A stretch of 61,285 nucleotides of DNA from Mycobacterium sp. UM_CSW (GTDB lineage: Bacteria; Actinomycetota; Actinomycetes; Mycobacteriales; Mycobacteriaceae). The stretch's first letter is position 1; every line of letters begins with the position of its first letter. This document shows, in pieces, positions 39,621 through 54,702 of this stretch. Made by a program: the position numbers and the translations under genes. The DNA lies in contig NZ_AUWQ01000015.1 in assembly GCF_000455205.1 (NCBI RefSeq), positions 1-61,285 of the forward strand, read 5' to 3'. The notes beneath the pieces were generated by a model that had not been told where the DNA came from, ran no database searches, and saw only the letters and a list, made by a program, of their open reading frames with translations.

Positions 39621-39674
39621 GTGCGACGGGGAAGGGTTGGAATCCAACGGCCTGAAGCCGACGGAGGACGTCAA
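39540..39674 (+). ncRNA. Predicted omega RNA (reRNA) scaffold at the right end of the TnpB element
   Basis: TnpB guide RNAs overlap the 3' end of tnpB and end at the right end of the element. The hairpins at 39636-39660 and the terminal GGACGTCAA fit that layout. The guide would begin at about 39675 (ACGCGCGGTTTGTGCT), which lies in the DUF6049 gene. The 5' end is a guess. Confidence 0.5.
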
Positions 39675-42058
39675 ACGCGCGGTTTGTGCTCGACCCGATC
39701 GTCGATCTCGTCGTGCAGGTCGGCGGATCTGGGATGCGGCGGGTCGGGGCGGTCCAGGTCGGCGCGGTCGGGCTGGCCGCGGAACCGGTGCCACAGCCGG
39801 CGACCGGCCAGCAGCACCAGCACCGCCGCCGCGCTGAGCGTGATCGCGAACAGCACCTTGCCGTACGCGTTGGAATGCACCGACAACCGCACCGGCTCGC
39901 CGAGCCGCATGCCGTCGGGGGTCCGCAGCGTCACATCGACCGCGACGCGCTGGGTGAAGTTCACCTCGATCGGCACCCGGAGCGGCAGGTAGCCCGGCGG
40001 CAATTCGATCTGGCCGACGTCGGTGACCGTCATGCCCGGCGGGGCATCGACCTGCAGCCGCACCCGGATGGGGACCGCGAGGCCGTTGTGCAGCGCCAGC
40101 GGCAGCGGGCTGTGCTCGGTGGCCAGGGTGTAGGAGCCGCCCGGGTTGACGATCGTGACCGCACCGAACAAGTCACTGATCGTCTTGCCGACCACCACCA
40201 GGCGCTGTTGGGCGAGCCCGTTTCGGGTGTCGGGCGGTTCGGATTGGCTCAACGCGCGCAGCATGTCCTCGCGCAGCGGCGCGGTGTACTGGACGCCGGT
40301 CAGACCGGTGCGCTCGTCGGTGGTCAGCGCGGAGGTGAGGCCCCACAGCCGGCCGACCTGGGCGGCGATGTTGGCGGTGACGTCGTCGGTGAACCGGCCA
40401 CGCGCGGAGCCGTCGTTGGCTGCCTGCTCGGGCGGCTCGGTGCGGGCCGCGGCCTCGGCGACGACGGCGGGCAGCGGCCGGGGCACCGCCAGGCCGGACC
40501 GGATGCTGGTGGCCAGCGCCGTCAGGATTACCTGCGCGTCGTCGGCCTGGAGGTTCCACGTCGCCGGCGGCACCAGCAGCTGGGTGCGCGGCGCCGCATC
40601 GCGCTGCAGCGCGTGCCAGAAGATCGAGCCCAACGCGTCCTGGCGCCGGGCGGTGTTGGAGTCGTGCGAAAGGCGGACGGTCAGCGAGGAGTCCAGGTAG
40701 GTGGGGGCGATCGGGTTGTTGCCCGCGCCGGCGAGCGCGGCGCCGACGGCCGGGTCGAACGGCGCGACCACCACCTGCGGGGACAACCGCCGGGGCGCGG
40801 TGTCGACGCCGGCCGGGTTGTCGGTCGTCGAGTCCTGGGCGGACAACTCGCCGGCGGCGATCGCGACCGTGCTGTCATCGGCGCTGAGCAGGCTGACGGT
40901 TCGGCCGGTCAACGGGCCGTCGGGCAGCAGCGTGGCCCCGCGGGCGGACTGGACGTCCAGGATGCGGTCGACGATGCCGCCGACGCTGTTGGTGGCGGCG
41001 GCGCTCAGCCCGGGGTCGTTGACGCGTTGCAGGGCGTCGAGGTCGGCCTGGGCGTAGGGCAGCGGCGCCACGCAGGTGCGGTGGGACAGGGCGCGCAGCC
41101 GATTCAGCCACTCGGTCGCGGCGGCCTGGCCGGTTCCCGGGTGGGTCGGGGTGCCCGGGTGCTGGGCGGGCCCGTCGGGCGAATTGGAGACCACGTAGCC
41201 CGCCGTCATCGCGTTGACGGTGACCAGCAGGTCCGGGTCGACGGCCAGGCACAGCGCATGGCTGACGGCGCCGTCGGGGTCGACGTCATGGCTGGTGGCG
41301 ACCTCCGCGGCGGCGAGCAGGATGTCCAGCCGCCCGCCGGTGGCCAAAGAGGTGGCCAGGTCGTCGTCGACCAACCGGACCGGAATGGTGCCGCCGGGCA
41401 CGCCGGGGGACAGCCGCGGCCGATCGGCCAGCGGCCACAGCATCGTGATCCAGACGGGTTTGGTGGTGTCGGGCGCGACGGCGGAATTGGCGTCGTCGGC
41501 GTGATCGGGCGGCACGCCGACCACGGGCAGCAGGAATCGCGCGTTGTCCAGGCGGGCCGGGGCGCCGTAGTCGGGTGTCCCGTTGACGTTGACCAGGACG
41601 GGGTAGATCCCGGGCTTCTCCATCCCCAAAGACGGCTTGGTCGATGCGCGCAGTGGGGCCGACAGGGTGAAGCTCACTTCCTGGCCGCGCTGCAGCTCGG
41701 GGGCCACCGTGAGGAAGTCGGCGGCCGGCTGGTACTGGTCGGTGCTGCCGTCCAGCGAGGTGCGCAACGCCGCGGAGTCGTTGACCGCCGGCGCGTGCTC
41801 CAGCCGGACCATGACGTCGCGGACCGGGCGGTCACCGATGTTGGTCACCATTCCACTGACGGTGACGACGGGTGGGCTGGTCGTGGTGACCACGTCCGGG
41901 GTCACCTGGTCGATGCGGACCCGGACGAAGGGCGTCTCCCCGGGTTCGCCCGCGGCCGCGCGCGGGGTGGGCCCGGCGAGCACCGCAAAACCGGCCACGA
42001 TGCCAACCACTGCGGCGAGGCGAGCGACGCCGGCCCAGCAGAGTCGGGGAGCCGTCAC
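39671..42058 (-). CDS. DUF6049 secreted membrane-anchored protein (Rv3909-like)
   Basis: A 795-residue protein with a signal sequence (about 1-35, ending AAAGEP), a large extracytoplasmic region with Ig-like beta segments, and one C-terminal membrane helix (about 730-752: [18 protein letters not shown]) before a charged tail. It is conserved between mutT4 and murJ in mycobacteria; function is unknown but its context points to wall synthesis. Its stop codon (39671-39673) lies inside the end of the TnpB element. It overlaps mutT4 by 4 bases. Confidence 0.9.
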
Positions 42059-42810
42059 GGCCCTGGCCCGTGACCGTTCTTCCGGCCCGCCACGGGCTTG
42101 TCGGAATGCCGGGTCCGCGAATGCGTTTGCGGGCGTCGACGCGGCGAGCTCGGCGGCAGCGGCGGAAGCGCGGACGGGCCGTCGCTCTGCAGCTTGTCGA
42201 TCAGCTCGTCGGCGACCTGGGCCAGGCGGCGCTCGTCGGCATAGGCCAACCGGGACGGCAGCTCACCGATCGGCACCCACGCCACCTCGGCGACTTCAAG
42301 GTCCTCGTCGGAGAGCTCGCCGCCGGAGAAGCGCATCAAATAGTGGTGCACGGTCTTGTGCACCCGGCGGCCGTCGGTGACGAACCAGTAGTCGATGCGT
42401 CCCAGCGCGGCGAGCACGCTGCCGCGAATACCCGTTTCCTCGGCGACCTCGCGGATGGCGGTCTGTTCCGCGGTCTCGCCCATCTCTATATGTCCTTTGG
42501 GCAGCGACCACAGCATCCGTCCGCGCCGATCGACGCGGCCGATCAGCGCCGCGACCTGCTCGTCGCGCGGCCCGTCGATTCCGTCGATGACGAGACCGCC
42601 GGCGGAGGTTTCGTGGACGGTCTTGAGTCGATCGGGGACGCCGCGGGATGGCCTGGACCGCCGGGGTTTGGAAGGCGACGAGTCGCCGTTCGTCTGGGGA
42701 TCTTTGGGGGTTTCGGCCGCGGCAGCCGCGCCACGACGCCGACGCCGCCCCCGGCGTCGACGTGGTTTGGCTTGTTCGGCGTCCGACACCCAAGCGATAG
42801 TAGCTGGCAC
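42055..42810 (-). CDS. mutT4: Nudix hydrolase MutT4
   Basis: A 251-residue Nudix hydrolase with the box [20 protein letters not shown] followed by TG (GX5EX7REUXEEXGU). A basic Arg/Pro-rich N-terminal 60 residues precedes the catalytic domain. Substrates may be oxidised nucleotides or dinucleotides; not decided by sequence. I used the GTG at 42810 because GGGAAG precedes it; a GTG at 42789 is the alternative. It is divergent from pcnA and first in a cluster with the DUF6049 gene and murJ. Confidence 0.92.
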
Positions 42811-42900
42811 GGGCTGGTCTTCCCGAGATACTCGCCGCTACTCGCCGTCCGGCGGCGCGGGGTCGGTGTCGGCCGCGTCACCCGACTACGCTGATCGAAC

Positions 42901-44343
42901 GTGCCTGACGCCGCCCAGGATGCCAACCTGCTGACCGCTGCCGCGGTCGCCCTGAACAAGCACGCCTCCGTGCTGGGTGAGCTGGGCGCGCTCTTCGAAG
43001 CCGGCGGTCACGAGCTGTACCTCGTCGGCGGTTCGGTGCGAGACGCGTTGCTGGGCAGGCTCAGTCCCGACTTGGACTTCACCACCGACGCCCGCCCCGA
43101 GCAGGTCCAGGAATTGGTGCGGCGCTGGGCCGACGCGGTGTGGGAGACGGGGATCCAGTTCGGCACCGTCGGTGTCGGCAAGGGCGACTATCGCTTGGAG
43201 ATCACCACGTTCCGCGCCGACGCCTACGACCAGGTGTCGCGCAAACCCGAGGTGCGCTTCGGCGATCGCCTCGAGGACGATCTGGTGCGCCGCGATTTCA
43301 CGGTGAACGCGATGGCCGTGCGGGTGCTGCCGACCGGGCCGGGTGAATTCCTTGATCCCCTAGGCGGTTTGGCGGCGCTGCGCCAGCGCGTGCTGGACAC
43401 CCCGGCGGCGCCATCGGTGTCCTTCGGCGACGACCCGCTGCGGATGCTGCGCGCCGCGCGGTTCGTCTCGCAACTCGGTTTCACCGTCGCGCCGCGGGTG
43501 CGGGAGGCGATCGAAGAGATGGCGCCGCAGCTGGCGCGGATCAGCGCCGAGCGGGTGGCCGCCGAGCTGGACAAGATGCTGCTCGGTGACGACCCGGTGG
43601 CCGGCATCGACCTGCTGGTCGAGACCGGGATGGGTGAAGTGGTGCTGCCCGAGGTGGGCGGCATGCGGATGGCCATCGACGAACACCACCAGCACAAGGA
43701 CGTCTACCAGCATTCGCTGACGGTGCTGCGCCAGGCCATCGCGCTGGAGGACGAGGGACCGGATCTGGTGCTGCGCTGGGCCGCACTGCTGCATGACATC
43801 GGCAAGCCGGCGACGCGGCGGCACGAGCCCAACGGCGGGGTGAGTTTTCACCACCACGAGGTGGTGGGCGCCAAGATGGCCCGAAAGCGGTTGCGGGCGT
43901 TGAAGTATTCCAAGCAGATGGTCGACGACGTCTCGCAGCTGGTGTTTCTGCACCTGCGGTTCCACGGCTATGGCGAGGGCAAGTGGACCGACTCGGCGGT
44001 GCGCCGCTATGTCACCGACGCGGGGCCGCTGCTGCCGCGGCTGCACAAGCTGGTTCGCGCCGATTGCACGACCCGCAACAAGCGCCGGGCCGCCCGCCTG
44101 CAGGCCAGCTACGACCGGCTGGAGGAGCGGATCGCCGAGCTGGCGGCCCAGGAGGACCTGGCGCGGGTGCGCCCCGATCTGGACGGTAACGCGATCATGG
44201 AGCTGCTCGGCATCCCGGCGGGCCCGCAAGTCGGCGAGGCGTGGCGGTATCTCAAAGAGCTACGGCTGGAACGTGGGCCGCTGACGACCGAGGAGGCGAC
44301 CGCCGAGTTGCTGTCCTGGTGGCGGTCGCGCGGGAACGCCTGA
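42901..44343 (+). CDS. pcnA: CCA tRNA nucleotidyltransferase / poly(A) polymerase (PcnA)
   Basis: A 480-residue class II nucleotidyltransferase, as in M. tuberculosis. It has LVGGSVRDALLGR, the catalytic DLD (residues 57-59), the RRDFTVNA motif, and an HD phosphohydrolase domain (HDIGKPATRR, then HHHEVVGAKMARK). It adds or repairs the 3' CCA of tRNAs, needed here because the tRNA genes at 12 kb lack encoded CCA. The GTG at 42901 starts it. Confidence 0.95.
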   Translation: MPDAAQDANLLTAAAVALNKHASVLGELGALFEAGGHELYLVGGSVRDALLGRLSPDLDFTTDARPEQVQELVRRWADAVWETGIQFGTVGVGKGDYRLEITTFRADAYDQVSRKPEVRFGDRLEDDLVRRDFTVNAMAVRVLPTGPGEFLDPLGGLAALRQRVLDTPAAPSVSFGDDPLRMLRAARFVSQLGFTVAPRVREAIEEMAPQLARISAERVAAELDKMLLGDDPVAGIDLLVETGMGEVVLPEVGGMRMAIDEHHQHKDVYQHSLTVLRQAIALEDEGPDLVLRWAALLHDIGKPATRRHEPNGGVSFHHHEVVGAKMARKRLRALKYSKQMVDDVSQLVFLHLRFHGYGEGKWTDSAVRRYVTDAGPLLPRLHKLVRADCTTRNKRRAARLQASYDRLEERIAELAAQEDLARVRPDLDGNAIMELLGIPAGPQVGEAWRYLKELRLERGPLTTEEATAELLSWWRSRGNA

Positions 44344-44414
44344 AAGGACCGACTGCGGCCGCCGGGCATAAAATGCAACGCGGATGCCGGTCTTTGTCCT
44401 GATTAGGAGGCCAT

Positions 44415-45863
44415 ATGACCGAACGTACAGGCGCAGATTCCGACGACCATGCGAGTCCGCCTGCGGTTCCCGCCGGCCCGCCCGAGGCCGTAGCAAACGG
44501 GTCCGGGCCGGTGCCGTTGCGCCCACAGGACGACAAGCCTGACAACGGGGCTCCCGCGCCGGAGACGCCAAACGACGCCCCCTATCAGTGGCCGGACCAG
44601 CCCGCGTTCCGCCACGGCGGGCCACTCGACGAGACCGCCACGCTGTTCGACCGCTCCAGGGCGCCAGGCCCGACACGTGGACGGGGCCGCGAATCCGGGC
44701 CTGCCCCAAGCAGACCCGACGCCGGCCAGTACGGGGGCCCGCGCCCCGACGGATGGGCCTCGGCCCAGCAACCGCCGGCATCGGGCGCCGCCTCGCCGCC
44801 GCGGCCGGATGTCCCCACTGACCCGCCGGGCCCGGCGTGGCCGCAACCGCAGCAGCAGGCGGCGCCGCCGACGGGCGGCCCCGGCTGGGGTCAAGCCCAG
44901 CGTCCGCCGCCGCCGCCGTTGAATTATGTCGACAGCATCCGCCGCAGCGACCTCGTGCCGACCCGGCGCATCCCGCCCGGCCGCGGCTGGCGCAAAGCCG
45001 TTTACGTCGCCAGTTTCAAGCTGATCAATTTGGGCTGGTCCCCGGACGAGCGTTATCAGGCCGAACTGGAAGCCAAGATCCGGACCCTGTTGCGCGGCAC
45101 CTACAAGATCGGCGTGCTGGGCAAGGGCGGGGTCGGCAAAAGCACCATCGCCGCCAGCGTCGGGTCGGTGTTCGCCGAGTTGCGAAACGACGACCGCGTG
45201 GTGGCGATCGACGCGGACACCTCGTACGGCAAGCTGGCCAGCCGGATCGACCCGTCGACGGCGAGCTCGTACTGGGAGTTGGCCTCTGACCGGCACCTGT
45301 TCTCGTTCGCCGATATCCGCGCCCGGGTGGGCAGCAACAGGGCCGGCTTGTTCGTGCTGGCCGGGGATGCGGCCACTGCCAGTCGCCGGGTGTTGGACCC
45401 GGCGATCTACCGCGAGGCGACGACGCAGCTCGACAAGCATTTCACCTTGTCGATCGTCGACTGCGGATCCAGCCTGGATTCGCCGGTGACCCAGGAGGTG
45501 CTCGCCGGTGTTGATGCGCTGATCGTGGTGTCTTCGCCGTGGTATGACGGCGCCTCCGCGGCGGCGCAGGCCCTGGATTGGCTGGCGAATCATGGGTTCA
45601 ACGGTTTGCTGCAGCGCACGGTGGTGGTGGTCAACGATTCGGACGGGCACGCCGCCAAGCGCGACATCGCACTTTTGGTCCAGCGGTTCGGCGGGCGGGG
45701 CCAGAAAGTGATCGAGATGCCCTTCGACGGGCACCTGCGCCCCGGTGGGGTGATCGACGTCAAGGACGAGGTCAACCGGACCACCCGGCGGCGCCTGTTG
45801 GAACTGGCCGCGGCGTGCGCCGAGCATTTCAGCACGACCGCCGGCCGGCCGCGGGGACTGTGA
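44415..45863 (+). CDS. EspI-like MinD/ParA ATPase with Pro-rich N-terminus
   Basis: A 482-residue protein. The first ~165 residues are Pro/Gly/Ala-rich and probably disordered. A short conserved segment (RGWRKAVYVASFKLINLG) precedes the ATPase domain (from about 230) with deviant Walker A LGKGGVGKSTIA and Walker B-like SIVDCGSS. This layout is typical of EspI-type ATPases associated with type VII secretion loci. A perfect AGGAGG (44405-44410) sets the ATG. It lies upstream of a membrane protein and a coiled-coil gene, and 2.6 kb from an eccA relic. A paralogue with an FHA domain is at 53.3-54.7 kb. Confidence 0.85.
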   Translation: MTERTGADSDDHASPPAVPAGPPEAVANGSGPVPLRPQDDKPDNGAPAPETPNDAPYQWPDQPAFRHGGPLDETATLFDRSRAPGPTRGRGRESGPAPSRPDAGQYGGPRPDGWASAQQPPASGAASPPRPDVPTDPPGPAWPQPQQQAAPPTGGPGWGQAQRPPPPPLNYVDSIRRSDLVPTRRIPPGRGWRKAVYVASFKLINLGWSPDERYQAELEAKIRTLLRGTYKIGVLGKGGVGKSTIAASVGSVFAELRNDDRVVAIDADTSYGKLASRIDPSTASSYWELASDRHLFSFADIRARVGSNRAGLFVLAGDAATASRRVLDPAIYREATTQLDKHFTLSIVDCGSSLDSPVTQEVLAGVDALIVVSSPWYDGASAAAQALDWLANHGFNGLLQRTVVVVNDSDGHAAKRDIALLVQRFGGRGQKVIEMPFDGHLRPGGVIDVKDEVNRTTRRRLLELAAACAEHFSTTAGRPRGL

Positions 45864-46012
45864 TGGCGGACACCGCCGAAAGCGCCTGTCGGGCGTTGGC
45901 GTCGGCGCGGTGCGACGACCTATCATCGAAAGATTCCAATGGTCTGAAGTCCGCCCAGGAGGCATACTGCACGTATGTTGAATTCCGATGGGCGCCTTCA
46001 GATCGTGGCTGA
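45863..46012 (+). CDS. Possible small protein coupled to the ATPase stop codon
   Basis: A 49-codon open frame whose ATG overlaps the ATPase stop (TGATG). It has three Cys (CRALASARC and a later YC) and overlaps the first 38 bases of the next gene in another frame. The coupling is the only positive sign; I know no homologue. It may be a chance frame. Confidence 0.25.
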   Translation: MADTAESACRALASARCDDLSSKDSNGLKSAQEAYCTYVEFRWAPSDRG

Positions 46013-46622
46013 AGGATTTGCGCTGCCCGGGCGGATGATGGCGCTACCGCCGGAGAACGAGTTCTTGATGTCAGCGGGGTTCGGCGGCGTTGCAGCGCTT
46101 GGCGCATCCATCATCGTGGCCCTTCTTGTGCTGCTCGCAATGCAGCGGGCGTCGCGGCGACACCGGATGGAGCTCGAGCAGCAGGAACGCCAGAATCGGG
46201 AACGTCGCGACGACGAGCAGCACGCGGCCGCGGTGACGCGATGCTGGCAGCGGCTGGTGTGGGTGGTCGAGACCGCGGGCATCGAGCCGGCGGCTGGCAA
46301 TGGTGCCACCCTCGGCCTGGGGCTTGGGCCGGAGCTGGCTTTGGAAATCCTGCGGGGGCTGCTGCGCGACGCGGAGCACCTCGGAGACGACACGCTCGCC
46401 AGGGCCGTGTCGGTCTACCTCGGCCAGTTCACGCTGGTGTTGGCCCAGCAAGGCAGCCTGCTCGATGAACCTCCTGGCGATCTGCCTGCTACCGCTGCCG
46501 GCGCAAAGCCGGACCTGCTCGCGATGCCGGAGGCGCTCCGAGCGGCACCCCGACCGCTGGCCGACGAAATGCCCGAACCGGGCCGGCGGATCGCCGCGGG
46601 CGGGAGGCGTCGGCGCCAGTGA
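45975..46622 (+). CDS. Hypothetical single-pass membrane protein
   Basis: A 215-residue protein with one membrane helix (about 33-56, AGFGGVAALGASIIVALLVL), followed by a charged helix (MELEQQERQNRERRDDEQ) and a cytoplasmic helical domain (about 85-160). The tail is basic. AGGAGG lies 12-17 bases upstream of the ATG. It overlaps the coiled-coil gene by 4 bases, so the two are translationally coupled and may form one complex. I recognise no family. Confidence 0.7.
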   Translation: MLNSDGRLQIVAEGFALPGRMMALPPENEFLMSAGFGGVAALGASIIVALLVLLAMQRASRRHRMELEQQERQNRERRDDEQHAAAVTRCWQRLVWVVETAGIEPAAGNGATLGLGLGPELALEILRGLLRDAEHLGDDTLARAVSVYLGQFTLVLAQQGSLLDEPPGDLPATAAGAKPDLLAMPEALRAAPRPLADEMPEPGRRIAAGGRRRRQ

Positions 46623-48325
46623 CCACCACACGGCAACACATCGAAGACCTCGACCGCGACGAGTGGGCCGCGTTGACAAAGCGCGCCGCTGCAGAAGCGG
46701 TCGCCGCTGCGGCGCGGCTGGGCACAAAGCCCCCCGCGGTGTTGGCCGTGATGGCCGGGATGACCGAACAAGACCTTGTCGAACACCGCAACCGGTTCGG
46801 CCCCGCGCGAACGCGCCTCTCGCCGATGATGCAGGTCGTCGAGGCGGACCAGTTGCGGCTTGCGGCCGAGCGCCGGGCACGCGAGGCCCTGCAGGACAAG
46901 CAGGACGCCAACGCCGCCGCGTCGATGGCGCAGGCGGAGGCTGAACAGTCTGCGCGCGCCGCCGAAGAAGCGCGCGAGCGCGCCCGTGCTGTCGAGGCGC
47001 AGGCGGCCAGTAAAGACACCGAGTGGGCGGGCGAACGCGCGGCGGCACGCCAGGCCCTGGAAAGGGTGCGCGCCGAGCTCGGGCGGGCCCGTGCCGACGC
47101 AGCGGCCGACGCCGCCGTAGCCCGGGAACTGGTCAGCGCCGCCGAGGCCCGCGCCGAACAGGGGATCGCCGAGCTGGCCGCCCAACGCGTGGCGGCGGAA
47201 CAAACGTTGCACACGCTGCGCGCCGAGCTGGAACGGGTCCGCGCCGACGCGATAACCGCGGCCGCCGCGGCTCAGGAAAAGATCAGGGCGGCGGAGGCAC
47301 GCGCTGAGCAACGGGTGGCTGAGCGTTCGGCCGAACGAGCCGCCGCCGAACAAGCCCTGCAGGAGGTGCGGGCGGAGCTGGAGCGGGTCCGCGCGGATAC
47401 GGCGGCCGAGGTTGCCGCGGCTCACCAACAGGTCAGGGCCGCGGAAGCGCGCGCCGTGCAGAGGTTCGGTGAGCGGGCCGCCGATCGAGCGATAGCCCAG
47501 GAAGCCCTGCAGCAGGTGCGCGCCGAGCTGGAGCGGGTCCGCGCGGACGCTGCGGCCGAGGTCGCCGCCGCGCGCGGGCAGATCAGTGGTGATGTGGAGG
47601 CCGGACAGCGAGCCGCGAAAGCCGAGGTCGACCGGGCGCGAGCGGAAGCGAACAAGGCCATCGCACGCGCGCAGGCCGAGGCCGAACAGGTCCGCGCCGA
47701 TGCCGCCGCCAAGGTCGCGGCCGTGCGCGAGCGAGCCGACGGTGAGATGGCCGCGGCGCGCGAGCACGCCGAGCGTGAGATTGCGGCGGCGCGCGAGCAG
47801 GCCGAGGGTGAGATCGCCGCTGCCCGCGACGCCGCGCAAGCCGAGGTGGCACGTGTACGCGCGGAAGCCGACGCTCGCCTCGCCGCCGCGACGCCAGCCG
47901 CGTCGCCCGAGTTGTTGACGATCCCCATCCCGCCGCCGGGAGTGCGGGAACATACCGGCCGGATCGAAGATGCGCTTGCTGCGGTACATCAGATCGATTG
48001 CGTCCTCGAGGCCGGCGTGGCTGACGATGTCGAATCGGCGGGTTCGATTGACGTCGAAGAGGTGCGCCGCCTCGTGAAGACGGTGCAGGAGCAGGCCGCC
48101 GATCTGTCGCGGGAACTCCGCGACCTGCCCGCTCAGTACAGCGCCGAGTGGCAGGTGGACGCCGCGGCCGGATACGCCAGGGCCGCGGCCAATGCCTATG
48201 GTGCTCTGCTGCAACGGATTTCGGCCGTGACCGAACAGCTGGCGCGCCCCGACGAAGACACCGATGCCGAAGTCATCGAGTTGGTCACCACGATGTTGGC
48301 CGAGCACCCGTGGCGAAGGCGCTGA
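46619..48325 (+). CDS. Long alanine-rich coiled-coil protein with 50-residue repeats
   Basis: A 568-residue protein. The first ~75 residues form a small helical domain; residues ~75-425 are an almost unbroken Ala/Glu/Arg coiled coil; residues ~430-568 form a helical C-terminal domain. Within the coil, RAELERVRAD recurs at residues 151, 201, 251 and 301, an exact 50-residue period (150 bp in DNA). KfrA plasmid proteins and polar scaffold proteins look similar in composition, but I cannot place it in either. The GTG at 46619 overlaps the upstream membrane gene. Confidence 0.75.
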   Translation: MTTTRQHIEDLDRDEWAALTKRAAAEAVAAAARLGTKPPAVLAVMAGMTEQDLVEHRNRFGPARTRLSPMMQVVEADQLRLAAERRAREALQDKQDANAAASMAQAEAEQSARAAEEARERARAVEAQAASKDTEWAGERAAARQALERVRAELGRARADAAADAAVARELVSAAEARAEQGIAELAAQRVAAEQTLHTLRAELERVRADAITAAAAAQEKIRAAEARAEQRVAERSAERAAAEQALQEVRAELERVRADTAAEVAAAHQQVRAAEARAVQRFGERAADRAIAQEALQQVRAELERVRADAAAEVAAARGQISGDVEAGQRAAKAEVDRARAEANKAIARAQAEAEQVRADAAAKVAAVRERADGEMAAAREHAEREIAAAREQAEGEIAAARDAAQAEVARVRAEADARLAAATPAASPELLTIPIPPPGVREHTGRIEDALAAVHQIDCVLEAGVADDVESAGSIDVEEVRRLVKTVQEQAADLSRELRDLPAQYSAEWQVDAAAGYARAAANAYGALLQRISAVTEQLARPDEDTDAEVIELVTTMLAEHPWRRR

Positions 48326-48457
48326 CGCTCAGCGTCGGCTCATCTCGACTGCCCCTAGAAATAGAGCAACCCCGGCGCGCCGTAGCCATCAACCGGGGCC
48401 AGACAGGTCGTGGGGCCAAACCGCAGAACCCGTACCTTGCTCGTTATCGAGTATGCC

Positions 48458-49397
48458 ATGGCGATCAGGGACCGGCAGGGGCCCGCCGCGGCGCTGCCGG
48501 AGTTCGTCGCCAACACCGAAGCCGACCCGTCGATGGCGACGCCTGGCTCGGTCGGATTGCCTGCGGCGACAACGATCTGGCCTTGCTGAAGCGGCTCAAC
48601 CATCATCGCGAATGGCTGTACCGGGAGACCACTCAGATCGGCCGCACGCTCGCTGCCGAGATGCAGTTGGGCCCCTACATCGGCATCACGGGCACCGACG
48701 CGTCTACACCGGGATGGGCATCGTGCGCCACCCCGAGATCCGCGAGGTCCGCCGGTCCGACTTCTGCGGCCACTACATCGGGGAGTCCGGGCCCAAGACC
48801 AACGAGCTGATCGAAAAGTCGCTCGGCCGAATCATTTTCATGGACGAGTTCTACTCGCTGATCGAACGCCACCAGGACGGCACGCCCGACATGATCGGCA
48901 TGGAGGCCGTCAACCAACTGCTCGTCGCATTGGAAACCCATCGATTCGACTTCTGCTTCATCGGGGCCGGCTACGAGGACCAGGTGGACCAATTCCTCAC
49001 GGTCAACCCGGGTTTGGCCGGTCGGTTCAACCGCAAACTGCGGTTCGAGTCATACTCGCCGGCCGAGATCGTCGAGATCGGCCAACGCTACGCCACCCCG
49101 CGGGCCAGCCTGCTCGACGACGGCGCCCGGGAGGCGTTCTTGGCGGCGGCCACCACGATCCGCAACGACACCACCCCCGGCGGTCAGCACGGGATCGACG
49201 CCATGCAGAACGGCCGGTTCGCCCGCAACGTCATAGAGCGCGCCGAGGGTTTCCGCGATACCCGGGTCGTTGCCCAGAAGCGGTCAGGCCGGCCCGTGAC
49301 CGTCGAGGACCTGCAGATCATCACTGCCGCCGACATCGAGGCAGCCGTGCGCAGTGTGTGTTCGGACAACCGCGACATGACCGCCATCGTCTGGTAG
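48458..49397 (+). pseudogene. eccA-type (EccA2-like) type VII secretion AAA+ ATPase, decayed
   Basis: Three pieces in three frames align in order with EccA. (a) 48458-48537: start of the TPR region (ALPEFVANTEADPSMA). (b) about 48538-48700: continuation in another frame (DAWLGRIACGDNDLALL to GPYIGITGTDA). (c) about 48702-49397: the AAA+ domain from just after Walker A (TGMGIVRHPEIREV) through Walker B (IIFMDEFYSLI) to the natural end CSDNRDMTAIVW. Piece (b) runs straight into (c), so about 270 residues with the Walker A GPPGTGKT are deleted. The product cannot be a working ATPase. Confidence 0.88.
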
Positions 49398-52470: not shown

Positions 52471-53346
52471 ATGAGCCAGTCGCAGTCGTCCAGCGACCAG
52501 GTCGCCGAGGCCTGGCGCAGTAATCGCCCGTATCTGGTGAATCTCGCGTATCAGATGCTCGGCGACGTCGGCGACGCGGAAGACGTTGCGCAGGAAGCCT
52601 TCTTGCGCCTCTCGCGTGCCGATTTGAACGAGATCGACGACGTCCGCGGCTGGCTGACCGTGGTGGCGAGCCGGATCTGCCTGGACCAGGTGCGTTCGGC
52701 GCGCGCCCGCTACGAGCGGCCGGGTGAGGTCGAGCTGCAGCCGGCGTCGCCGCGGCTGGACCCGGCCGACCGGGTCACCCTCGACGACGAGGTTCGTACC
52801 GCCTTGCTGGAGGTCTTACGCCGGCTCAGCCCCGGTGAGCGGGTCGCGTTCGTGCTGCACGACGTGTTCGGTGTCCCGTTCGACACCATCGCCGAGACGG
52901 TGGGCCGTCCCGTCGGCACCTGCCGTCAGCTGGCGCGGCGCGCACGCACCAAATTCACTGTGGCGCAACCGAAATTGAACGAGGTGGCCCCGGCCGAGCA
53001 CCAGCTCGTCACGGAGAAGTTCATCACCGCGTGCGCCAACGGCGACATCGCCGCGTTGACCGAGGTGCTGGATCCGACGGTCTGGGGGGTGGGCACGGTC
53101 CTGGCCGAGCCGGCGCCGCCGCCGCAGATCAACCACGGGCCCGACGCGGTGGCCACCAACCTGCTGCGCTATCTCGGCCCGGAAGTGACCCTGGTCGTCG
53201 GGCCCGCGGGAGGACCCGCGGTGTTGGCCTTCGTCGACCGCCGCCTCTTCGCGTCGATCGTGCTGACGATTCGCGGTCGCCTCGTGACGAAGATCGAGGC
53301 CATCGCCGATCCGTGGGCGCGCCTGGGTGCCGGTCAGCGGCCTTAG
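52471..53346 (+). CDS. sigI: SigI-like ECF sigma factor with SnoaL-type C-terminal domain (ECF41 type)
   Basis: A 291-residue sigma factor. Region 2 (about 15-80: YLVNLAYQMLGDVGDAEDVAQEAFLRL) and region 4 (about 120-170: LSPGERVAFVLHDVFGVPFDTIA) are followed by a ~120-residue SnoaL/NTF2-like domain typical of ECF41, which regulates the sigma factor in cis. It resembles M. tuberculosis SigI (290 aa) as I recall it. ECF41 genes often regulate a neighbouring oxidoreductase; here the divergent reductases are the candidates. It overlaps the next gene's stop by 4 bases, convergent. Confidence 0.85.
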   Translation: MSQSQSSSDQVAEAWRSNRPYLVNLAYQMLGDVGDAEDVAQEAFLRLSRADLNEIDDVRGWLTVVASRICLDQVRSARARYERPGEVELQPASPRLDPADRVTLDDEVRTALLEVLRRLSPGERVAFVLHDVFGVPFDTIAETVGRPVGTCRQLARRARTKFTVAQPKLNEVAPAEHQLVTEKFITACANGDIAALTEVLDPTVWGVGTVLAEPAPPPQINHGPDAVATNLLRYLGPEVTLVVGPAGGPAVLAFVDRRLFASIVLTIRGRLVTKIEAIADPWARLGAGQRP

Positions 53347-54702
53347 CGCGCCGCACCGGGTGGCCGGGCGGCGAAATACCCTGCGACCGTCGCCGTCACC
53401 TCGAGAAGCCTGCGCCGGGCCGCCGGGGACATCTCGCGGTCCACATCGATGACGCCGCCCGGCCGTAGGTGGGGATCGAAGGGCACCTCGACCACCGGCT
53501 GCCCGTGTTCGACGAATTCGCGCGCCAGCAGCTCCCGGGTGCGTTTGTCGGCGTGGCCGTCGGAGTCGTTGAGCACCACGATGGTGCGGCGCAGCAGCCC
53601 CGTCAGGCCCCTCTCCGAGAGCCATTCCATGGTTCTTGCGGCCGCGGAGGCCCCGTCCGCCCACGGCGAGGACACCACGATCAGCGCATCCAGGTCGCGC
53701 AGGACCTCCTGGGTCACCGGCGCGTCCATCGTCGAGCCGCAGTCGATGACCGAGATCGTGAAGTGGTGGTCCAACCGCAGCGCGGCCTCCCGGTAGATCG
53801 CGGGGTCGAGCACCCGGCGCGGCCCGGACGCCGGCTCGCCGCCGAGCACGTGCAGGCCGGTGGAGTTACGGCCAAGGCGCCCAACCACATCCGCGAACGA
53901 CCGCAGGTTCTTGTCGGCGGTCAGTTCCCAAAAGGAGCCGGCCGATCGCGGATCGATTCGGCTGCTCAACCGGCCGAACGCGGTGTCGGCGTCGATCGCC
54001 ACCACATGGTCCTGCCGGCGGAGCTCGGCGAAAAGCGATCCGACGCTGGCGGCCACCGATGTCTTGCCCACCCCGCCCTTGCCCAGCACGCCGACCTTGT
54101 AGTTGCCGTGCAGGGGGGTTCGGATGGCCGCCTCGTACTGAGCCTCCTGGCGCTGCGCGGGCGACGGCCCCAGCTTGACAAGGCCAAAGGTGGCCAGCCG
54201 CAGGACGCGTCGCCAACCACGCTCGGGCAGTTCCGCTGCGGCGGTCGGTGCGGGCTGCTGTGGCGGCGGGACCGGGGGAGGGGCCGGGCGGGGCGGCGAC
54301 GGGAGGGCCCGGTTGACCGGACCACGCCGCCCCCGGCTGGGCCACCGGGATGCCCATCGACTCGGTGCGAGGCGGGCGACCCGCCAGCCCTTGGTGGCGG
54401 CCCACCTCGAAGGTCAGCTGCGGCCCGTCGGGATTCCCGATGTTGATGCTCTGGCCGTCGTGGATGTCGACCACCGGCACCCGGCGGCCGTTGACGAAAG
54501 TGCCGTTGAGCGAACCGTTGTCGATCGCCAGCCACCTGCCCTGGTCGAATCGCAGCAACAGATGCGCGCGCGAGATCAGCGGGTGCGTGATGCGCATGTC
54601 GGCCCGGAGGTCCCGTCCGACGACGACGTCGTGACCGGCTGCGAAGGTGCGCTCCGACCCGTCATGACGAACCGTTAACGCAGGCGGGGCTGGTGCACTC
54701 AT
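53343..54702 (-). pseudogene. FHA domain plus EspI-like MinD ATPase, interrupted by a frameshift
   Basis: The 5' part (from the ATG at 54702) encodes an FHA domain (about residues 5-90: VVGRDLRADMRITHPLISRAH, then GSLNGTFVNG) and runs into a Pro-rich linker. The 3' part (to 53343) encodes the ATPase with LGKGGVGKTSVA and VIDCGST, preceded in its own frame by a Pro-rich linker and RGWRRVLRLATFGLVKLG. The two frames are both Pro-rich between about 54250 and 54330, where C-runs occur. A single-base indel there would join them into one ~450-residue protein. A true mutation and a sequencing error are equally possible. Confidence 0.8.

What the first reader, a model, noticed from the sequence alone, without database searches (positions are those of the whole stretch)
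44415..48325. Candidate undescribed module: EspI-like ATPase, membrane protein and repeat coiled-coil scaffold
An EspI-like MinD/ParA ATPase lies upstream of a single-pass membrane protein that is translationally coupled to a 568-residue coiled-coil protein. MinD/ParA ATPases commonly position membrane or polymer partners, so an ATPase with membrane anchor and scaffold suggests a positioning or secretion-site system. I recognise no described mycobacterial system with this set.
Basis: inference. Interest (0 to 1): 0.8.

Follow-up and report, generated by a model that had tools for sequence, protein, structure and literature searches.

The report
Two-gene membrane anchor and rod cassette
A membrane protein and a long rod-shaped protein are inherited together as a tightly linked gene pair found on plasmids and chromosomes of mycobacteria and their relatives, while the neighbouring ATPase gene looks like a leftover of a secretion system that is not generally part of the pair.

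Summary
The EspI-like ATPase (44415-45863) belongs to a family found in 55 of 60 genomes searched; elsewhere it is an ESX (type VII) locus gene. Here it sits in a decayed ESX neighbourhood and is directly beside the membrane gene only in this lineage (window and Mycobacterium sp. E796).

The membrane protein (MP, 45975-46622) and coiled-coil protein (CC, 46619-48325) are a real two-gene unit. Of 28 genomes (198 searched) with a strong MP, 27 have a strong CC; the 28th MP runs to its contig end. A 4-nt stop/start overlap is kept in 66 of 69 loci (redundant set), in about 18 genomic contexts, several on plasmids.

A profile of mycobacterial CC N-termini alone finds the same ~70-residue "head" directly downstream of divergent MPs in six further loci, two on Rhodococcus plasmids, with other tails.

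Best reading: an undescribed, mobile, two-part cassette: a membrane anchor that recruits a docking-head protein with interchangeable tails. Here the tail is a ~350-residue rod ending in a helical bundle. Docking and cellular role are inferred, not shown.

The parts
45975..46622 (+). MP: single-pass membrane anchor, 215 aa, AGGAGG 12 nt upstream of ATG
46077..46145 (+). transmembrane segment of MP (about residues 35-57); N-terminus probably outside, basic cytoplasmic side after it (inference from charges)
   Evidence: hydropathy; helix 34-101 in AlphaFold model
46329..46463 (+). predicted cytoplasmic helical hairpin of MP (residues 119-163)
   Evidence: nearly invariant residues
46619..46622 (+). 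4-nt GTGA overlap of MP stop and CC start, kept as RTGA in 66 of 69 loci
46619..48325 (+). CC: 568-aa protein with head, long rod and C-terminal bundle
46619..46828 (+). docking-head candidate (residues 1-70; helices 2-9, 13-33, 40-47, 50-60); same domain found beside divergent MPs
47021..47568 (+). 150-nt (50-residue) tandem repeat in the rod, 3.7 copies
47725..47829 (+). 33-nt (11-residue) tandem repeat in the rod, 3.2 copies
47915..48322 (+). conserved C-terminal helical bundle of CC (residues 433-568; helices 447-468, 479-502, 510-541, 547-561)
44415..45863 (+). EspI-like MinD/ParA-type ATPase: neighbour, not judged a part of the cassette
48541..49397 (+). remnant of eccA (ESX AAA-ATPase), approximate bounds, N-terminal and C-terminal pieces in different frames
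   Evidence: NCBIfam EccA 339 bits, below its cut-off; frames
53343..54413 (-). second EspI-like gene (stop-to-stop bounds), about 60% identical to the first over the ATPase domain; neighbour

Best explanation
MP and CC form a self-contained, horizontally mobile two-gene cassette. MP is a single-pass inner-membrane anchor whose cytoplasmic helical part receives the ~70-residue head of the downstream protein, made in coupled translation through the 4-nt overlap. In this family the head carries a long Ala/Glu/Arg-rich helical rod of variable length ending in a conserved four-helix bundle, so the complex would be a membrane-anchored tether reaching into the cytoplasm; in divergent relatives the same anchor and head carry other tails. 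The EspI-like ATPase is an ESX gene in a decayed ESX neighbourhood and is not a third component in general. Shown: pairing, overlap, conservation, spread over many contexts, head plus anchor beside each other with other tails. Inferred: topology, MP-head binding, tether function.
For: 27 of 28 genomes with a strong MP (E <= 1e-30) have a strong CC, the 28th MP runs to the end of a 4693-base contig; pair adjacent in 33 of 34 named loci, the 34th being that same contig. 4-nt overlap in 66 of 69 loci (redundant: some genomes fetched twice). MP and CC distances agree (Mantel r 0.89 head, 0.87 rod, 0.90 C-term; 0 of 999 permutations reach it). About 18 flanking contexts, 25 plasmid records with MP, two copies in one genome (G100: L042 and L045; M. 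arosiense: L098 and L104). Profile of 30 mycobacterial heads only: matches in L057, L059, L072, L073, L139, L140 (E 2.5e-7 to 9e-4 in 21,740 ORFs), each directly downstream of an MP match (E 1.8e-12 to 1.6e-6); two are Rhodococcus plasmids. Tails not alike by blastp at E 0.1 except L057/L059. Ends of CC modelled with pLDDT about 80-94 and rod length varying (395 to 632 aa in all) between conserved ends.
Against: No experiment and no complex model: MP-head binding is not shown. The distant loci were fetched through MP, so only the head match is independent there. 4 of 10 distant MP loci (L058, L074, L075, L076) had no recognised head; L075 and L076 MP matches are weak and L075 is short. In the distant pairs the 4-nt overlap is not kept (gaps 48-79 nt, or an overlap of 23 nt in L057). 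pTM of the models is low (0.47, 0.31). dN/dS of EspI equals that of CC, so EspI is also kept by selection in this lineage.
Confidence: 0.55

Rival explanations
1. One reading: EspI ATPase, MP and CC are one three-part positioning or secretion-site system, the ATPase positioning the membrane scaffold.
For: All three are same-strand neighbours, kept for the E796/window lineage with similar dN/dS; in SM1 and Actino1 espI and MP-CC are in one ESX cluster.
Against: EspI near MP in 4 genomes and 2 of 18 contexts, from two EspI subfamilies; EspI in 55 of 60 genomes without need of MP.
Confidence: 0.07
2. KfrA-like plasmid accessory: the head binds DNA (perhaps at its own promoter) and the coiled coil polymerises, holding or condensing plasmid DNA at the membrane through MP.
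For: Plasmid location; globular N-terminal head plus long helical rod, as described for KfrA-type proteins (PMC7821693, passages).
Against: No KfrA_N or other DNA-binding Pfam match among 14 heads or 30 full CC; no shared upstream motif clearly above shuffles and no common inverted repeat; on pMK12478 neither gene is among the one essential and two growth-defect genes (PMC10470612 section 11, with tags).
Confidence: 0.2
3. Conflict system (anti-phage or anti-plasmid): MP is a membrane sensor or effector platform, the head protein a swappable effector.
For: Conserved anchor and head with diversified tails; accessory-region placement; 5 of 10 hand-picked neighbours match PADLOC models (methyltransferase, HerA-like, DrmC-like, PDC-S28-like helicase, a weak MkoC).
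Against: MP and CC match no PADLOC model at E 0.1; the neighbours were picked by me without a control and most contexts show none; the CC tail has no recognised catalytic domain.
Confidence: 0.2
4. Accessory of ESX (type VII) secretion or of the type IV/VII conjugation machinery.
For: ESX core gene within 12 kb in 4 of 18 contexts; MP directly after eccE in SM1 and Actino1; type IV coupling protein gene near in the pRAW-like group; two DUF4226-like genes just upstream in L042, L043, L102, L103 (Pfam score below cut-off).
Against: 14 of 18 contexts have no ESX core gene within 12 kb (some loci are shorter than that); plasmids are rich in such genes anyway.
Confidence: 0.13
5. Toxin-antitoxin pair.
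For: Two overlapping genes on plasmids.
Against: CC is 395-632 aa in the loci counted, unlike usual antitoxins or toxins (general knowledge); neither gene is among the genes called essential or growth-defect on pMK12478, as an antitoxin would be; no family match.
Confidence: 0.03

Closest known systems
KfrA-type plasmid proteins (IncP-1, IncU)
   Same: Plasmid-encoded, globular N-terminal head, long helical coiled-coil tail, near-total helix.
   Different: KfrA binds DNA through an HTH and has no membrane partner in the passages seen; here no KfrA_N match and the constant partner is a membrane protein.
EspI of ESX/type VII loci
   Same: The neighbouring ATPase is of this family: KGGVGKS P-loop, 73% over the ATPase domain to EspI of M. 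avium plasmid pP4-4a.
   Different: EspI is normally inside an ESX cluster (between eccB and eccD in the three plasmids looked at); here it stands without one, and EspI is not generally linked to MP-CC.
ESX-2 locus of slow growers
   Same: E796 has pcnA-espI-MP-CC followed by an eccB/eccC/espG/espI cluster; the window keeps an eccA-like remnant at that side.
   Different: MP and CC are not ESX components; they are absent from the named ESX gene sets and from most ESX loci.
Pentapeptide-repeat protein of Rhodococcus erythropolis PR4 pREC1 (WP_011331158)
   Same: Its N-terminus matches the divergent MP of L073 (39% over 73 residues, E 2e-4).
   Different: Anchor is fused to pentapeptide repeats with no separate head gene; it was not matched by the mycobacterial-only profiles.

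Membership tests
KfrA-type plasmid coiled-coil proteins | N-terminal HTH/KfrA_N DNA-binding domain | tested here: not met
   No KfrA_N match in 14 heads at E 1 or 30 full CC at E 0.1; DNA binding itself not testable
KfrA-type plasmid coiled-coil proteins | long alpha-helical tail | tested here: met
   helix 69-424 in model; 50-aa and 11-aa repeats
KfrA-type plasmid coiled-coil proteins | operator repeats in its own promoter | tested here: inconclusive
   coarse k-mer and inverted-repeat scans upstream of MP: nothing clearly above shuffles
EspI (ATPase only) | MinD/ParA-type ATPase domain with deviant Walker A and Pro-rich N-terminus, homologous to EspI | tested here: met
EspI (ATPase only) | location inside an ESX cluster | tested here: not met
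   only an eccA-like remnant nearby; no close eccB2 in the genome: three eccB at 35-42% to that of E796
ESX core or accessory component (MP, CC) | constant linkage to ESX core genes | tested here: not met
   4 of 18 contexts
Known anti-phage defence system | match to a described defence protein family | tested here: not met
   MP and CC: no PADLOC match at E 0.1
Known anti-phage defence system | protection against phage | not testable with these tools
   needs an experiment
Anchor plus docking-head cassette (proposed here) | MP directly upstream of a head-bearing gene | tested here: met
   33 of 34 named loci; six divergent loci, while 4 of 10 distant MP loci had no recognised head

The most novel reading that the evidence does not exclude
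A previously undescribed modular membrane-recruitment system, plasmid-borne across Mycobacteriales: one conserved anchor and one conserved ~70-residue docking head, onto which evolution swaps unrelated cytoplasmic tails (rod plus helical bundle, pentapeptide repeats, other domains), so that each plasmid or chromosome island stations its own effector or tether at the inner membrane.
Probability: 0.35. Interest if true: 0.75.

Novelty: new variant of a known kind. Interest (0 to 1): 0.5.

Why it matters
Plasmid-borne genes of unknown role are common, but a strictly paired anchor and head with changing tails is a concrete handle on what many mycobacterial and rhodococcal plasmids share. If the anchor recruits the head, one binding test explains a whole series of 'hypothetical proteins', and the tail swaps would show what these plasmids station at the membrane. 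It also corrects a tempting but wrong link between a stray EspI ATPase and a scaffold, and documents loss of an ESX-2 cluster beside the pair.

Tried and rejected
Three-gene module: rejected as general. Phage origin: no match of MP or CC in the phage collection, and none confirmed for MP in viral contigs. Known families: Pfam, NCBIfam, PADLOC and PHROGs give nothing above cut-off for MP or CC; sub-threshold MP hits (DUF6082 in 7 of 32, DUF4328 in 6 of 32) were not taken as homology. PDB by sequence: best MP hit E 0.014, best head hit E 0.14. PDB by fold (Foldseek): best E 0.09 for CC, 1.0 for MP, none at 0.001. Shine-Dalgarno site before CC: SD-like 4-mer in 11 of 29, so not general. KfrA-like operators: not found. 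Papers: no hit for 12 locus tags or accessions of the pair and its relatives; these searches cover only the open library and those 12 terms.

The EspI tree is weak evidence: support 91/92 is below the tool's mark, it holds long branches and one fragment, and a same-genus non-plasmid-typed EspI (L126) is nearly as close (69.7% against 72.8%).

Genome lists are samples of the groups. Dropped before counting: three weak MP genomes (G013, G153, G182) and four weak CC genomes (G073, G147, G169, G181) were left out of the 27-of-28 count.
Full report
What is in the sequence. Downstream of pcnA (42901-44343) the plus strand carries an EspI-like ATPase (44415-45863), a single-pass membrane protein MP (45975-46622) and a 568-residue protein CC (46619-48325) whose GTG start overlaps the MP stop by 4 nt. 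CC has a 50-residue repeat (3.7 copies) and an 11-residue repeat (3.2 copies), 29% alanine, and hydrophobic residues spaced at about 3.6, i.e. a straight rather than a classical heptad stripe. AlphaFold on an alignment of 30 sequences gives CC a four-helix head (residues 2-60), one helix 69-424 and a C-terminal helical bundle (447-567), and MP one helix 34-101, which includes the membrane segment, and a hairpin 119-163. pTM is low (0.31 and 0.47), so only local structure should be trusted.

The ATPase. EspI homologues at E <= 1e-60 are in 55 of 60 sampled Mycobacterium genomes. In the three plasmids looked at, EspI sits between eccB and eccD of an ESX cluster. The window EspI is closest to EspI of M. 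avium plasmid pP4-4a (72.8% over the ATPase domain; support 91/92), but an EspI of another genome (L126) is nearly as close (69.7%), so a plasmid origin is only favoured. The window matches Mycobacterium sp. E796 at 94.7% from 39671 to 48341, ending 16 bp after the CC stop. E796 then runs, after about 8 kb, into an ESX cluster: eccB and an espI by profile search, eccC, PE, PPE, two small Esx-like proteins and espG by my reading of the translations. In the window an eccA-like remnant in broken frames follows instead, and the genome holds only three eccB genes, 35-42% identical to that of E796. The simplest reading is that an ESX-2 cluster was deleted here; that the remnant is eccA2 is inferred from its place and direction, since the E796 contig ends before its eccA2.

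Is the ATPase part of the system? In 34 named loci fetched with the MP profile, EspI is in the fetched stretch in 3: E796 (directly adjacent), SM1 and MAG Actino1. In the last two the order is espG-espI-eccD-mycP-eccE-MP-CC, and their EspI is only about 35% identical to that of the window. In the redundant set of 69 loci, EspI is within 12 kb in 7 rows, representing 4 genomes and 2 of 18 contexts; an ESX core gene of any kind in 4 of 18 contexts. Some fetched stretches are shorter than 12 kb on a side, so these are lower bounds. Against my reading: EspI is kept by selection in the window/E796 lineage as strongly as CC (dN/dS 0.146 and 0.145), so a lineage-specific use together with MP-CC is not excluded.

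The pair. Of 198 Mycobacterium genomes, 31 have an MP match and 31 a CC match at E <= 1e-3; 28 MP and 27 CC matches are strong (<= 1e-30), and 27 genomes have both. The exception is an MP that runs to the end of a 4693-base contig. Every strong pair fetched is adjacent. The overlap is 4 nt in 66 of 69 loci, 1 nt in two rows of one genome, and lost in pMA100, where an IS3 transposase gene separates two pieces of MP. MP and CC distances correlate (Mantel r 0.87-0.90). Flanking genes define about 18 contexts; this grouping joins loci by at least two shared flanking families, so its largest group is a chain. MP is on 25 plasmid records, all Mycobacterium, including pMK12478, pMUM002, pMAH135 and pMA100. 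Two copies occur in G100 (L042 and L045) and M. arosiense (L098 and L104). All this marks an autonomous, mobile pair.

The modular head. MP searches of wider groups gave divergent relatives (10 of 301 and 4 of 345 genomes including the window's own). Two MP hits on plasmids led to Rhodococcus pDK4 and pRoPD630_3. A profile made only from 30 mycobacterial CC heads, searched against 21,740 ORFs of 142 held sequences (the loci and the window), finds heads in L057, L059 (both in the window's genus), L072, L073 (other genera of the family), L139 and L140 (Rhodococcus), E 2.5e-7 to 9e-4, each directly downstream of an MP. Because those loci were chosen through MP, the head match is the independent result. 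Four further distant MP loci have no recognised head: L074 (partner with a ribosomal-S15-like domain), L058 (TetR-like and LysM domains), L075 and L076 (weak MP matches). The tails of L072, L073, L139 and L140 and the CC rod and bundle show no similarity to each other by blastp at E 0.1; L057 and L059 share a region, and L059 adds pentapeptide repeats. In R. erythropolis PR4 an MP-like N-terminus is fused to pentapeptide repeats.

Mechanism proposed. MP anchors in the inner membrane with its basic, helical part inside (inference from charges); coupled translation delivers the head protein beside it; the head docks on the MP hairpin; the tail does the specific work. In this family the tail is a rod of variable length between two conserved ends, which suits a tether joining the membrane to something held by the C-terminal bundle. 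What the bundle holds is unknown. TnSeq of M. kansasii plasmid pMK12478 names one essential and two growth-defect genes (PMC10470612, section 11 read), none of them MKAN_RS28000 or MKAN_RS27995 (MP and CC), so the pair is not needed for growth or plasmid upkeep in culture, which weighs against a toxin-antitoxin pair and a core partition system. The data set with each gene's call was not opened.

Comparison with the known. KfrA-type proteins are the nearest in build (PMC7821693, passages), but no KfrA_N domain, no operator and a membrane partner set the pair apart. No defence model matches MP or CC; 5 of 10 neighbours that I picked by hand match PADLOC models, which is a hint without a control. 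A review of plasmid-borne ESX clusters places ESX on pMAH135 and pMK12478 and notes loss of ESX-2 in several species (PMC4791881, passages). No paper in the open library holds the 12 locus tags or accessions searched.

Verdict. Observation confirmed; interpretation partly supported; an undescribed two-gene family of moderate interest, with a bolder modular reading that the evidence allows.

Noticed in passing
window 48541-49397: Broken eccA-like remnant right after CC; ESX-2 cluster present in E796 is missing here and the genome has only three eccB genes, 35-42% to that of E796.
   Followed up: yes
window 53343-54413 (-): Second EspI-like ATPase without an adjacent ESX cluster; its E796 counterpart lies on the contig that also holds an eccA and eccB.
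   Followed up: partly
L074 1969-2754: Gene next to an MP-like protein carries a ribosomal protein S15-like domain at its C-terminus (Pfam E 1.1e-28).
   Followed up: no
L058 1977-3182 (-): Partner of a divergent MP combines TetR-like and LysM domains.
   Followed up: no
L141 2941-4710: Rhodococcus erythropolis PR4 pREC1: MP-like N-terminus fused to a long pentapeptide-repeat region.
   Followed up: partly
L069 9866-11927: On M. avium pMA100 an IS3 transposase gene separates two pieces of MP while CC stays open.
   Followed up: no
L033 10318-12123: CC of G045 seems to leave its frame: its C-terminal part matches in a second frame.
   Followed up: no
L042, L043, L102, L103: Two DUF4226-like genes lie just upstream of MP (Pfam score below cut-off), a possible secreted-substrate context.
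   Followed up: no
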